From positions 1 through 64,000 of the IMG/VR virus record IMGVR_UViG_3300031787_000063: a DNA stretch of 64,000 nucleotides, one strand, 5' to 3'. Shown here piece by piece: positions 6,353 to 63,762 of the stretch (the stretch's first letter is position 1; each line of letters begins with the position of its first letter). The stretch is from a virus. Under the pieces are notes generated by a model. The model ran no database searches. It worked only from the letters and a program-made list of their open reading frames with translations, and was not told the DNA's origin. The position numbers were made by a program, and so were the translations under genes.

Positions 6353-6765
6353 TTATAGTAAAAAAACTAGAGTGGATGAGAGACTATGTTGATGCTGTTT
6401 CTCATTTGCTCCCAAAAATTAAACAACTCAAAAAGATTTCCTCAAAGACAGGAAACAAAGAACGCTTCCAACACTGTCACGGATTAATAACTTACTTTGA
6501 TAAAAAATCATTTCGCATTACTTTATATGTAACATACCATGAAACTCTTAGTGATAAAATCATAGACTATAGTACTATAGATCTTCTACAGTATTTAGCA
6601 CATGAGCTTGCTCATTTGGAACATTGGGATCACACTCCGGGACATAAACAATTAGAATGTATCTTAATGGGAATTTTTATGACAAGACTTGCTCAGGATG
6701 GCTATGTTTCAGAAGAAGAAGAGGAAAAAAACGGTTCATTTTATGAAAGGGAGGACGAAGAATGA
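6349..6765 (+). CDS. SprT/WLM-like zinc metallopeptidase
   Basis: A 138-residue protein with HELAHLEHWDHTPGH, that is HExxH plus further histidines expected to bind zinc, as in SprT-like proteins. The acidic C terminus (EEEEE) is unstructured. SprT-family proteins act on DNA-bound proteins in cells and viruses; the phage role is not established. The start overlaps the exonuclease stop as ATGA, indicating coupling. Confidence 0.75.
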   Translation: MIIVKKLEWMRDYVDAVSHLLPKIKQLKKISSKTGNKERFQHCHGLITYFDKKSFRITLYVTYHETLSDKIIDYSTIDLLQYLAHELAHLEHWDHTPGHKQLECILMGIFMTRLAQDGYVSEEEEEKNGSFYEREDEE

Positions 6766-7430
6766 TTATTGCTTTCTCTGGTACTAAATTTGCTGGAAAA
6801 GATACTGCTGCAGAAATACTAATAAAAAGACATGGCTTTAAGAGAATTGGGTTGGCAGACAAATTAAAAGATATTTGTTCTGATGTTTTTCAAATTCCAA
6901 GAGCTGACATGGATGATCCTAGTAAAAAAGAATATCCTTTCAAAAAAGAAGTAACAATAAGTATAGAAAACATTGATGAGTTATTACGGAGGGTTCAAAG
7001 AGATGGATTTGAATTTGACTATGAAGAAATATACAGAGGAGTTTGTAAGAATTTTCATGGTAAAAATCTTACAAGTATTCGTGACATTCTTCAAACTATC
7101 GGCACTGATTTATTTCGCACTTATATTAAAGATGACATTTGGTTAGAGTATATTAAAAAAGAACTTTCGCCAGAAGATAACATTGTAATTACTGATGCTA
7201 GATTTCAGAATGAGAGAGATTTTCTAAAGAAAATGGGAGCTATATTAATTCTCGTTAATAGACCGGGATATGAATCAAAAAGTTCTCATATAAGCGAAAA
7301 CCAGTTAGGATCTCCTTCTGATTATGATGTAGTAGCAATGAATGATTCTAGTATAGGTCATCTGCAATCTAGCATATCTATGTGGTATGAAATGAGAAAA
7401 CATGAGCTTTTACGTTATTCTAGAAAATAA
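6762..7430 (+). CDS. Deoxynucleoside monophosphate kinase
   Basis: A 222-residue kinase with P-loop GTKFAGKDT at residues 6-14, a LADKLKDI segment as in T4 gp1-type dNMP kinases, and VITDARFQNERDFL near residue 145. It converts dNMPs to dNDPs for DNA synthesis. Together with the class II ribonucleotide reductase and ThyX elsewhere in the window it forms the phage nucleotide supply route. Confidence 0.88.
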   Translation: MIIAFSGTKFAGKDTAAEILIKRHGFKRIGLADKLKDICSDVFQIPRADMDDPSKKEYPFKKEVTISIENIDELLRRVQRDGFEFDYEEIYRGVCKNFHGKNLTSIRDILQTIGTDLFRTYIKDDIWLEYIKKELSPEDNIVITDARFQNERDFLKKMGAILILVNRPGYESKSSHISENQLGSPSDYDVVAMNDSSIGHLQSSISMWYEMRKHELLRYSRK

Positions 7431-57769: not shown

Positions 57770-60715
57770 TTATGGAGTTGGTTTTAAAGATGCATTGAGT
57801 GTGATAATTCCTTCTATGTCATCATTAGTGTATTGAAGTTGTCCAGAAGGTGTAGCACTTAGAGAAACTCCCGTAGGTCCCAATTCGGTACTAGGCAATC
57901 CATCTACGCTAAGATATGTAATGGCATTAGAATAGTTCGAATCCCCCATTTCTACTCCTATTACTCCAGAATAAAATCTACCTTCGGAAATATAAGCAGT
58001 GGGTATTAAAGCTAATTGTTCATTTGATCCTGCATTCATTAAGGTATCTAGATAAATGTAATTAAATGCAGCATCAGGAATTCCTGTTAAAGCTGTAGTT
58101 CCATCTTGATTTAAAAATCTTAGATTACCATTATAATAACTAGATTGATATCCTAAGTTAATTATGATGTAATTTTTAAATAAAACTATTGTAGTTGCTG
58201 CTGCCGGAATTTTTCCTCCATTAGAAGCATTTGCACAGAATGCTGTGTCCAGTGTTCCATCGGAATTTAATCTGATAAGATGATTTCTACCAGATCCCTT
58301 ATATCCACTAAAAACTCCTCCGATTAATATTTTACCATTAGATTGAACTTTAACATTTCTAGTTTCGCTATTAAATGTGTACGAATCTACTGCATTAGTA
58401 CAAAAAGCCTCATCTGTTGTTCCGTCAGAATTTAATCTAAGAAAATAACCTCTTCCGCCAATGTTATTATAATTATAGAATTGTCCTGCAACTAAAATTT
58501 TTCCGTCATTTTGAATTTCTACACAATATATTTGTCCAGAAAATTTATTACCATCAGAAGCGTTTATACAAAAAGATTCGTCCAATGTACCATCAAAATT
58601 CAATCTTACCAATCTGTTTCTATTAGAAAAATTATTATAACTAGTAAAATTTCCTGCAATTAAAATTTTTCCATCCGATTGAATCGCTATAGAATTTATC
58701 CTATCTATAAACTTATTTCCATCAGATGCATTGGAACAAAAAAAATCATCAAGAGTTCCGTCAATATTTAGCCTTACCAATCTGTTTCTATTAGGAACTC
58801 CTCCATAATCTGTATAATCTCCAGCAACTAATATTTGACCATTAGGTTGAATTTTAATATCTCGAATTGTTGAAAATTTACTTTTTATAGTTTCACAAAA
58901 ATCTATATCCAAAGTAGAATCGGAGTTAAATCTGACCAATCCATTATATCCAGAAATTGTATCATAACCAGTGAAAGTTCCTCCAATTAAAAATTTTCCA
59001 TCCGACTGTATTGCTGTAGTCAGTACCGTGCTATTTATTTTAGCAGATTTACTAGAAACACTATCTGATAAAGTAGCATCTCTTGTTCCATTTGAATTTA
59101 AAACAGTTACAAAATTTCTATATTTAAAATTAGAGTAATTGGTAAAATTCCCCATTACCATAACTTTCCCACTACTTAACTCCAAAGCACATCTAGTTTC
59201 CGAATTAAATTTTAGACCGTCAGTGGAATTTATTGTATAAGGAGCGTCTAAAGTTCCATCGGAGTTCAACGCTACAAAGTAAGTTCTAGTAGAGGCTCCT
59301 CCATAATTACTAAAACCACCACATAACAAAATCTTACCATTTGATAACAATACAATTCTTCTTATGAAATCATAAGGACTCAGTTTATTAAATGTATTAT
59401 CATAAAAAGTACTATCCATAGTACCATCTGAGTTTATTCTTCTAAATCCAGCCGTGTTGTACGAACCATATACTTGTCCACCATAAAGTATTTTACCGTC
59501 AGGTTGCACTACTATAGAAAACACTGCAGGGTTAAGATTTTTATTATCCGAAGCATTTACGCAAAAATCATTATCTACTGTTCCGTCAGAATTTAATCGA
59601 ATCATCCCACTTCTACCAGAAGTTCCAGCGTAGCTTGTAAAACCTCCTCCTACTAAAATTTTATTATCAGTCTGTAATGCTATTGTAATTACATTACCAG
59701 TAAACTTACCTCCGTTAGAAGCGTTAGCTATAAAGTCTGCGTCCGAAGTACCATCTGAATTTAAGCGGACCAAATATCCAGTAAAATCGCCACCCACAAG
59801 TATTTTACCATCTGACTGCTGAGCTACTGAAATTACGGTGCTACTAAATTTATTATTATCAGAAGCATTTACACAAAATGCGTTATCTACTGTACCGTCT
59901 GAATTTAATCGAACTAATCTACTTCTACCAGAAATTCCACCATAAGTTTGAAAACTTCCGCCTACTAATATTTTTCCATCAGATTGGATTTCTATAGCAT
60001 GAATTTCAGAATTAAATTTATCATTAGAAGAAGCATTATTGCAAAATTCTACATCTAAACTACCATCTGAATTTAATCTAATTAGCCTATTAAAATTAGC
60101 AAATCCTTTTGAATTAGTGAAGGTTCCGCCAAGTAATATCTTTCCATCAGATTGTTTTTTAGCAAAGTTTATTACAGCATTAAAATCTGTAAAATCAGAA
60201 ATAATTCTCAAATCGCTATCTACTACGGGCATTTTTTTAGTAATAGAGTAATTGATATCAAAGCCGTATGAATTAGGGTTAAGTCGTGCGTTTTCAATAT
60301 TTTGAGGGGAGCTTACATTTGCAGAATATGCTTTTATAAAAGTAGCTGGGAGAGCTGGGTAATTGCCTGTACCTAGTGCTAAATCGAATTCTCCTGTAAC
60401 TAAACTAGACCTTGGAATTTGTAGGCTTCCTCCATCAAAGTCCGTAATTACCAATTTCTCAACAATAAAATCATCTCTAGAATCTGCTGTAACTAAAAAT
60501 GTAGCAGTTGGAGAAGATAAGGTTGCATTGAAATCCAAAAGCTCAGATTGACTACCAATCGTTGAAATGTATACAAGCCTAACACGATTCCAATTTGTAA
60601 GGTTTGAAAAATAAGGATCTGCAAGTACTAGAGGATGTGCAGCAAGTTCTGTTTTATCTAATGTAAAAACTGCCGGGACACCTTTAGAAACAACTGGTTT
60701 TATGATTATTGACAT
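57770..60715 (-). CDS. Adhesin with delta-60 repeat beta-propellers (981 aa)
   Basis: A 981-residue protein. Residues 1-115 are the shared module. About 12 clear and one degenerate delta-60 repeats (QSDGKILVGGxF...RLNSDGTLDxxF) follow between about residues 175 and 850. Most carry a Cys right after the final Phe (FCxNAS). The C-terminal 100 residues end in TPSGQLQYT, shared with the small fibre protein at 36565. Delta-60 repeats occur mainly in bacterial surface proteins, so capture from a host is probable. The 26 bases before its start follow a perfect late motif. Confidence 0.8.
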   Translation of the reverse strand: MSIIIKPVVSKGVPAVFTLDKTELAAHPLVLADPYFSNLTNWNRVRLVYISTIGSQSELLDFNATLSSPTATFLVTADSRDDFIVEKLVITDFDGGSLQIPRSSLVTGEFDLALGTGNYPALPATFIKAYSANVSSPQNIENARLNPNSYGFDINYSITKKMPVVDSDLRIISDFTDFNAVINFAKKQSDGKILLGGTFTNSKGFANFNRLIRLNSDGSLDVEFCNNASSNDKFNSEIHAIEIQSDGKILVGGSFQTYGGISGRSRLVRLNSDGTVDNAFCVNASDNNKFSSTVISVAQQSDGKILVGGDFTGYLVRLNSDGTSDADFIANASNGGKFTGNVITIALQTDNKILVGGGFTSYAGTSGRSGMIRLNSDGTVDNDFCVNASDNKNLNPAVFSIVVQPDGKILYGGQVYGSYNTAGFRRINSDGTMDSTFYDNTFNKLSPYDFIRRIVLLSNGKILLCGGFSNYGGASTRTYFVALNSDGTLDAPYTINSTDGLKFNSETRCALELSSGKVMVMGNFTNYSNFKYRNFVTVLNSNGTRDATLSDSVSSKSAKINSTVLTTAIQSDGKFLIGGTFTGYDTISGYNGLVRFNSDSTLDIDFCETIKSKFSTIRDIKIQPNGQILVAGDYTDYGGVPNRNRLVRLNIDGTLDDFFCSNASDGNKFIDRINSIAIQSDGKILIAGNFTSYNNFSNRNRLVRLNFDGTLDESFCINASDGNKFSGQIYCVEIQNDGKILVAGQFYNYNNIGGRGYFLRLNSDGTTDEAFCTNAVDSYTFNSETRNVKVQSNGKILIGGVFSGYKGSGRNHLIRLNSDGTLDTAFCANASNGGKIPAAATTIVLFKNYIIINLGYQSSYYNGNLRFLNQDGTTALTGIPDAAFNYIYLDTLMNAGSNEQLALIPTAYISEGRFYSGVIGVEMGDSNYSNAITYLSVDGLPSTELGPTGVSLSATPSGQLQYTNDDIEGIITLNASLKPTP

Positions 60716-62048: not shown

Positions 62049-62365
62049 GCCAGAAACCACAAAATAAAGTTAAACAAACTTCAGGTGGTATTGGAGTAGA
62101 ACAGTATAATAAAGCTTTGGTTAGAGCTGCAATAGAAGCTACAAAGCTAACCTTTATAAAATCACCCTCTGACCGTCCTCTCGAAATAAATATTGTTGAC
62201 TCTGTATATGCCGTTCCCGGAAAGGTTATGCTTGTCCCAAATGGCACAGAAGTCGATGATCCATCAACTCCATACAAAGATCGCATAAAGCAATTAGAGT
62301 ACGAACTGGCTAAAGCTAAGAGAGCAAAGAAACATATTCTTAGTAATGTACGTACAGGTGCATAG
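62045..62365 (+). CDS. Hypothetical protein (106 aa)
   Basis: Soluble protein of unknown function with a charged C-terminal coiled coil. Last gene before the large non-coding region. Confidence 0.6.
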   Translation: MSQKPQNKVKQTSGGIGVEQYNKALVRAAIEATKLTFIKSPSDRPLEINIVDSVYAVPGKVMLVPNGTEVDDPSTPYKDRIKQLEYELAKAKRAKKHILSNVRTGA

Positions 62366-62430
62366 ATATATAAACACCAATTCTGGCGTATGTATACTGC
62401 CCAAATCAAATTCAAAGTCAAACCCACCTA

Positions 62431-62457
62431 CCCCCCTTGGGGTGGGGAGGGGGGGGG
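62431..62457 (+). other. C/G-rich tract with G-quadruplex potential
   Basis: CCCCCC, then GGGG-T-GGGG-A and nine G in a row. The four G-tracts satisfy the simple G-quadruplex pattern; the C-run before them could instead form a hairpin. Very unusual in this AT-rich genome. Could mark an origin, a packaging or recombination site, or a transcription stop. Confidence 0.7.
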
Positions 62458-62460
62458 ATA

Positions 62461-62640
62461 CTTGACCAAAGCATTTCGCTCAGGATTAATACCTGACTGA
62501 TTAACTCGGTCGGATATAATACCTGACTAAACTAATAAGCTCGGATACTAATACCCGACAAAACCATTTTGCTCAACTAATATAATACCTGACTAAATCA
62601 CTTCACTCAGTTATAGGGTATACCCGACCAATCTAATCGG
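62461..62640 (+). repeat. Tandem array of promoter-like hairpin repeats
   Basis: Five degenerate units, spaced 30-35 bases, built on CTCRG-N-TAATACCYGAC. The first three units can form hairpins (TCAGG/CCTGA, GTCGG/CCTGAC with a wobble pair, TCGG/CCGA), so pairing is kept despite base changes. Two units hold perfect TATAAT (62515, 62581), with YTGAC-type sequences about 16-20 bases before, resembling stacked promoters or iterons. Confidence 0.6.
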
Positions 62641-62674
62641 ATAGGCAAAGTTTACCTATCTTGTGCTTTTTTTT
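62640..62674 (+). terminator. Stem-loop followed by a T-run
   Basis: GATAGG (62640-45) pairs with CCTATC (62655-60); after 6 bases a T8 run follows (62667-74). It could be a weak terminator or an attenuator between the promoter-like array and the structured region. Related ATAGG...CCTA elements recur at 62751 and 63315. Confidence 0.4.
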
Positions 62675-62698
62675 AAACCATGAGACAATGATTGTATC

Positions 62699-63396
62699 AG
62701 AAGGAATAAACCTTCTAAAAAGAAAAGGAAAAAAGAGATAACATTAAGACGATAGGCAAAAAGTACCTAGCTTGAGTTATCAGAAAAAAAGAGATACAAT
62801 AGATAAGAGACAAGGAAACGAGTCTCGATAATCAAACGAACGATTGACGCATAGCGGTAACACTATGATAAGATCGGGGTAGCAGTAAGGTCTGACCTGT
62901 AACGTGACCTGAGTGAGTACCATATCGGTACGGCTATGCAAAGTAGGAGTAATGCCCTACGATAGGTTTTGCGGTGGTGCATTTAGACTCGTCGAGTCAA
63001 TCTATCAGTGAAGTCCAGCTTAAGCAACTGACTCGCTTTGACAAGCATAGGTACAGCGTTTGTCCCTTGTGGTGAGGGACTAAGTGAACAAAGTCACGAA
63101 CTAACGCTTCGCAGTATGTCGATAAGTACAGTAATCGAGTGTAGCAATGCGTCAACTATCAGGTTATAGATGATGCATCTCGTCTGGAAAGTATTACTGG
63201 AGATAAAGGGTATACTGTTTAGTGATTGAATGAGTACTGTATTGAGATTGTAGGGTACAAAAAGTATAGTTTTCCCTATCCTTTAGTAATGCAGTTTTAT
63301 AGTTCGGTATTGCATAGGTAATCTTTACCTACGCTTTACTTGGTGTAAAGCTACATGGTACGATAGTCTCAGTACAGTATTCTTTTTCTTACTGTA
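62699..63396 (+). ncRNA. Candidate large structured non-coding RNA
   Basis: A gene-free stretch of about 700 bases, less AT-rich than its surroundings, with at least 16 simple helices. A 9-bp long-range helix (62844-52 with 63147-55) closes a domain containing GTACC/GGTAC (62917/62927), GTAGG/CCTAC (62943/62956), GATAG/CTATC (62961/63002) around GACTC/GAGTC (62986/62994), AGCGTT/AACGCT (63055/63103) around GTCCCT/AGGGAC (63062/63075) and GTGA/TCAC, and TCGAT/ATCGA (63119/63134). Outer hairpins lie at 62699, 62737, 62807, 63315, 63333 and 63373. The size and phage context recall GOLLD and ROOL RNAs, but I cannot identify it. Confidence 0.55.
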
Positions 63397-63507
63397 TTAA
63401 AGAACGATTATTTTTACGATATATCTATACTGGTTAAATTTTTAGGGTAATCGAGTCATGTTTTTTAAAACATTATTCAATTATCCCACAAATTCAACTA
63501 GTTACAT

Positions 63508-63543: not shown

Positions 63544-63762
63544 ATGATTACAGTTTTTGTCAAGTTTAATAAACACTATGGGGTAGAGCGTATCTATCCT
63601 GATTGCCCGATTACGGAAATCTTTGCCGATATTGCCAAAACGAAAACTTTGAGCGAGAATGATTTAGTGAACATTGAGAAGCTCGGTTATAAAATCGAAG
63701 TCCGTCCCACTGTTTACTATAAGTCCCCATGCGGTAGAGTTACTATTAACTTAGGAGAATAG
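63544..63762 (+). CDS. Hypothetical protein (72 aa)
   Basis: Small alpha/beta protein of unknown function, first gene after the non-coding region, with its ribosome site inside a hairpin loop. Confidence 0.65.
   Translation: MITVFVKFNKHYGVERIYPDCPITEIFADIAKTKTLSENDLVNIEKLGYKIEVRPTVYYKSPCGRVTINLGE

What the first reader, a model, noticed from the sequence alone, without database searches (positions are those of the whole stretch)
62699..63396. Possible undescribed large structured RNA in a phage
The only long gene-free stretch of the window folds on paper into at least 16 helices, including a 9-bp helix joining bases about 300 apart and nested three-way-junction-like domains. Large ornate RNAs (GOLLD, ROOL) are known from phages, and this has similar size and context, but I cannot assign it to either family.
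Basis: partly seen in the sequence, partly recalled or inferred. Interest (0 to 1): 0.87.

Follow-up and report, generated by a model that had tools for sequence, protein, structure and literature searches.

The report
New large structured phage noncoding RNA
An uncultivated ~80-kb phage and at least four relatives carry, in the same place, a roughly 580-base RNA whose shape is preserved by paired mutations while its sequence drifts; it matches no catalogued RNA family and sits at the head of an early-looking gene block.

Summary
The stretch holds a real structured RNA on the + strand. Homologues occur in four related IMG/VR records (G004, G005, G007, G009), behind the same leader. A covariance model built without the window and without G007 still finds both (E 0.0024 and 8e-6 in 544 kb). 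On the model alignment 97% of cells pair and 27 of 37 pairs show double changes (shuffled mean 13.6; 0 of 500 shuffles reach it). Nothing in Rfam 15, GOLLD, ROOL, OLE and HEARO included, matches the window or these homologues.

The boundaries move: the core probably runs from 62807, six bases after a promoter-like site in the same register in four loci, to a U-run near 63387; 62699-62806 is mostly promoter sequence.

Downstream, a 74-nt hairpin resembling an RNase III site is kept in three phages. In another relative, G016, the locus has a type II hammerhead on the 5' side and a probable type III on the 3' side, suggesting a released RNA. Function is inferred: a trans-acting ncRNA, probably early. 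GOLLD/ROOL-like self-assembly is possible but untested.

The parts
62366..62460 (+). Conserved leader: ACACC..CTGGYGT element followed by a C/G tract
   Evidence: Same element and C tract precede the RNA in G004, G005, G007, G009, and the element with a C tract lies at the end of contig G008; by eye
62461..62640 (+). Array of TGAC...TATAAT promoter-like repeats
   Evidence: Direct repeats D2, D3, D5; one consensus match CTGACT-16-TATAAT at 62493-62520. The scan as a whole is near its shuffle expectation, so promoter function is inferred
62642..62658 (.). Palindrome TAGGCAAAGTTTACCTA, operator-like, before a promoter-like site (TTGTGC-17-GACAAT, 62661-62689)
   Evidence: related copies at 62753-62769 and 63315-63331
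62699..62716 (+). Hairpin AGAAGG-AATAAA-CCTTCT at the start of a possible longer transcript
   Evidence: Similar hairpins in G004 and G007
62772..62800 (+). Promoter-like site TTGAGT-17-TACAAT of the core RNA
   Evidence: same 17-nt spacer and 6-nt distance to the core start in the window, G004, G005 and G009
62807..63387 (+). Core noncoding RNA, about 580 nt
   Evidence: Homologues and covariation; ends inferred
62807..62826 (+). 5' hairpin GAGAC/GTCTC
   Evidence: Present in G005 with the same sequence
62841..62876 (+). Stem H1b (62841-62845/62872-62876) enclosing hairpin H1 with CGGTAA loop
62888..62910 (+). Hairpin H2 with ACCTGTAA loop
   Evidence: Double changes at all 4 compared positions among four phages
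62917..62931 (+). Hairpin Ha (GTACC/GGTAC)
62934..63050 (+). Domain closed by Hb (62934-62939/63045-63050), with extra hairpins in the window and G007 and the GCAA hairpin Hx (63016-63030)
63056..63107 (+). Three-way junction: stem Hd, arms He and Hf, joining strands UAA and GAAC
   Evidence: 16 pairs, 100% of cells paired, 15 with double changes; recovered in held-out sequences
63129..63199 (+). Stem Hg (63129-63135/63193-63199) followed by GAGATAAAGGG
   Evidence: pairs fully in four phages, double changes at 6 of 7 positions
63232..63387 (+). 3' domain: 20-bp stem 63232-63251/63363-63382 then U-run 63383-63387, terminator-like
   Evidence: Same arrangement in G005, a related one in G009
63429..63502 (+). 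Long hairpin between RNA and next gene, possible RNase III processing site
   Evidence: z -6.9; G005 z -6.7 with changed sequence; G009 folds alike when whole
63544..63762 (+). First gene of the downstream block (72 aa); a similar protein follows in G005
   Evidence: no Pfam match

Best explanation
A ~580-nt structured noncoding RNA of a new family. It is transcribed on the + strand from sigma70-type promoters at the head of an early-type gene block (rIIA-like, DnaB-like helicase). It ends at a 3' domain followed by a U-run, or is cut from longer transcripts at a processing hairpin, and then acts in trans as a folded RNA. Shown: conserved secondary structure, strand, locus, and absence from Rfam. 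Inferred: transcription, exact ends, processing, early timing, and action in trans. Most likely role, weakly supported: an abundant RNA that binds host or phage machinery, or its own copies, during infection.
For: Covariation with controls; independent recovery of window and G007 by a model built without them; one copy per genome in all five records of the family; promoter-like site in the same register in four loci; 52 of 60 comparative pairs already in the unconstrained fold from 62807; 3' stem plus U-run in three phages; hairpin between RNA and genes in three phages and hammerheads around the corresponding stretch of G016.
Against: No transcript data. Only five sequences, two of them cut by contig ends. 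Alignment A6 is fitted to the structure. Single promoter scores are ordinary (3 to 37% of random positions score as well). The G016 RNA is only marginally similar and its 3' hammerhead is below the Rfam cut-off. Folding energy of the core is unexceptional. Always lying upstream of the same block would also fit a cis-acting leader.
Confidence: 0.6

Rival explanations
1. Cis-acting leader: the structure is the 5' untranslated region of the downstream operon and controls its transcription or translation, for example by antitermination or RNA stability.
For: Same strand and upstream of the same type of genes in the window, G005 and G009; a hairpin links RNA and first gene.
Against: Its 3' domain ends in a stem plus U-run; hairpin or ribozyme sites appear to separate it from the genes; its size and multi-domain form exceed usual leaders (general knowledge).
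Confidence: 0.22
2. Replication origin: tandem promoters and an RNA that primes replication through an R-loop, in the manner of ColE1 RNA II or the T7 primary origin.
For: Promoter-like array, palindromes and C/G tract next to a long gene-free stretch.
Against: GC skew follows gene direction and shows only a small local turn here; conserved domains extend through the whole RNA; hammerheads in G016 would cut a primer.
Confidence: 0.1
3. No RNA function: DNA hairpins or chance folding in a non-coding spacer.
For: Folding energy of the core is not exceptional in this genome; the - strand also folds better than shuffles.
Against: Compensatory changes far beyond both controls, G-U pairs in the + sense, recovery by a held-out model, conserved UAA and GAAC junction strands.
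Confidence: 0.04

Closest known systems
ROOL RNA
   Same: Large (659 nt in the solved example), structured, carried by phages and prophages, no known protein partner (PMC12286853)
   Different: No match to its Rfam model in the window or homologues; context here is an early-type block, with only two tRNA genes (2.8 and 13 kb downstream) rather than a tRNA island
GOLLD RNA
   Same: Large phage RNA of unknown function, domain-wise variable 5' part (PMC12286853)
   Different: No model match; GOLLD often exceeds 800 nt and its expression rises at lysis (PMC12286853), whereas an early position is inferred here
Hammerhead ribozymes in phage-related regions (type II)
   Same: Relative G016 carries a type II hammerhead at this locus; hammerheads in phage intergenic regions and around genes are reported (PMC3088659)
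   Different: The window and its four homologues carry no Rfam hammerhead hit; a large ncRNA flanked by hammerheads on both sides was not found in the literature searched here

Membership tests
GOLLD (Rfam) | Match to the family covariance model | tested here: not met
   cmscan with all 4227 Rfam models at gathering and lenient thresholds, window and homologues
ROOL (Rfam) | Match to the family covariance model | tested here: not met
ROOL / GOLLD | RNA-only homo-oligomeric cage | not testable with these tools
   Needs mass photometry or cryo-EM (as in PMC12286853)
ROOL / GOLLD | Location near tRNA islands (frequent, not obligatory) | tested here: inconclusive
   tRNA-Met at record base 66365 and tRNA-Val at 76665 only; none found in G005, G009 or G016 stretches
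OLE, HEARO (Rfam) | Match to the family covariance models | tested here: not met
Hammerhead ribozyme (Rfam) | Catalytic core match in the window or family members | tested here: not met
   None in window, G004, G005, G007, G009; present only in G016
New RNA family defined here | Three-way junction with UAA and GAAC joining strands and covarying stems | tested here: met
   Window, G004, G005, G007 and G009; not found in G016

The most novel reading that the evidence does not exclude
A new class of large phage RNA, released from the early transcript by processing signals (a long hairpin in some phages, flanking hammerhead ribozymes in another), that works as an autonomous RNA particle during infection, possibly by self-assembly.
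Probability: 0.2. Interest if true: 0.87.

Novelty: new variant of a known kind. Interest (0 to 1): 0.64.

Why it matters
Few large ornate RNAs are known, and the functions of GOLLD and ROOL remain open. A further, unrelated phage family at the head of an early-type gene block, with a relative that may release its RNA by ribozymes, would show that phages have evolved such RNAs more than once. It also gives a compact comparative set with defined domains for structure and function tests.

Tried and rejected
Rfam at gathering and lenient thresholds: nothing in the window or homologues. blastn against phages and plasmids: no match. Pattern scans of viral contigs with an RNA 3' motif, the 5' GACGCAT motif and the leader gave only known loci or chance hits outside the family. 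Genome contigs with the rIIA-like profile and the terminase: no relative. The first MAFFT alignment misplaced the variable insert, so trimmed or compact sequences were used. Genome-wide folding z-scores were dropped as decisive evidence (a first run timed out). Chance-level model hits in G024 and at a second place in G005 were set aside.

Full report
What was checked. The window is bases 1-64000 of a 79,717-base IMG/VR virus record. Its proteins include a weak P22/SU10-type portal match, a terminase, a family A DNA polymerase and a ribonucleotide reductase. The terminase has only one, distant match among 50,697 phage records, at 27% identity, so the clade has no close cultured member in that collection. 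Between the gene ending at 62365 and the gene starting at 63544 there is no convincing ORF.

Folding. The reported stretch folds better than 20 shuffles on both strands (z -6.4 and -4.3). This is weak evidence on its own: the conserved core alone gives z -2.7, and several 300-nt windows in coding sequence of the same genome reach about -5.

Homologues. Nothing was found in Rfam, phages or plasmids. Relatives were reached through the terminase and through proteins downstream of the RNA. Searching these records with the DNA found the RNA in G005 (complete), and in G004 and G007 (both cut by contig ends). G009 was found by position, upstream of its rIIA-like gene, and then by similarity. In each, the RNA follows the same leader and C tract, and promoter-like sites precede it. 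The downstream genes could be compared only in the window, G005 and G009. A model search over 34 records finds one copy in each of the five genomes and no credible other.

Structure. On a trimmed alignment RNAalifold predicts 18 pairs, 15 of them with changes on both sides (the window and G007 rows had their inserts shortened by hand). Eleven hand-drawn stems, with registers fixed mainly by conserved flanking letters, pair in 98% of cells against 56% when arms from different phages are combined; the arms were chosen because they pair, so this number is biased. The cleaner test is model R2, built only from G004, G005 and G009: it finds the unedited G007 sequence (E 8e-6) and the window (E 0.0024) in 544 kb, with the three-way junction in the right place, and the next hit has E 6.4. 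On the resulting alignment 97% of cells pair, 27 of 37 pairs show double changes against 13.6 in shuffles (none of 500 reaches it), and sliding the partners by one to three columns drops pairing to 27-43%. The outer hairpins of the window and G007 are placed there on hairpins that are probably not the homologous ones, but the three-way junction (helices 6-8) is anchored by conserved UAA and GAAC strands: 16 pairs, all cells paired, 15 with double changes. G-U pairs are kept in the + sense, so the RNA strand is +.

Ends. A promoter-like TTGAGT-17-TACAAT ends at 62800. In G004, G005 and G009 the same spacer and the same 6 nt separate the -10 box from the start of the core; individually such scores are ordinary (3 to 17% of random positions), but the shared register is suggestive. 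Folded from 62807, the unconstrained minimum-energy structure already contains 52 of 60 comparative pairs, and forcing all of them costs 0.6 kcal/mol. At the 3' side a 20-bp stem closes a ~150-nt domain and runs into a U-run, also in G005; G009 has a related arrangement.

Separation from the operon. A long hairpin at 63429-63502 lies between the RNA and the next gene; it is kept with changed sequence in G005 (z -6.9 and -6.7) and folds alike in G009. It resembles an RNase III site (inference). In G016, a relative with 73% identity in the rIIA-like protein, the same place carries a type II hammerhead (42.5 bits, cut-off 37) and, about 300 nt downstream, a type III candidate with a complete CUGAUGA...GAAA core (25.1 bits, below the cut-off of 48.5, E 0.014). 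The stretch between them shares GAGAUAAAGGGU and flanking letters with the window, a score reached by 1 of 300 shuffles; it scores no better than shuffles against the other four, and the models do not recognise it. G016 may hold a diverged or a replaced RNA; the argument from it is by analogy.

Mechanism. Position at the head of a + strand block with L5 gp82-like, GP88, DUF932, rIIA-like and DnaB-like helicase genes suggests early, strong expression. The best-supported reading is an autonomous structured RNA acting in trans. The leader and origin readings are kept as rivals. What it binds is unknown; self-assembly as in GOLLD and ROOL (PMC12286853) is possible and untested.

Place among known RNAs. 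It matches none of 4227 Rfam families, and the literature searches found no description. It may work like GOLLD and ROOL; it is not a member of either. It is a new family of an existing kind, large phage ncRNAs.

Noticed in passing
L043:6829-6897 and L043:7201-7247 (record G016): Type II hammerhead above the Rfam cut-off and a type III candidate below it, on either side of the stretch that corresponds to the RNA; an 84-aa ORF (6577-6828) precedes the first.
   Followed up: partly
62430-62458, and the same place in G004, G005, G007, G008, G009 and G016: C-rich tract (followed by a G tract in the window) upstream of the promoter-like array; kept in all relatives that reach the locus. Purpose unknown.
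   Followed up: partly
62642-62658, 62753-62769, 63315-63331: Operator-like palindromes around TAGGCAAAGTTTACCTA just upstream of -35-like boxes; four in the window with up to 2 mismatches, 0.84 expected. A phage regulator may bind them.
   Followed up: partly
57770-60715 (-): 981-aa protein with eleven DUF5122 beta-propeller repeats (Pfam E 3e-118); no relative found in viral contigs by the pattern search.
   Followed up: no
L002:6366-6442 and L002:16666-16749 (record bases 66365 and 76665, outside the window): tRNA-Met and tRNA-Val genes in the block downstream of the RNA; an Rfam tRNA hit also in L042 at 972-1044.
   Followed up: no
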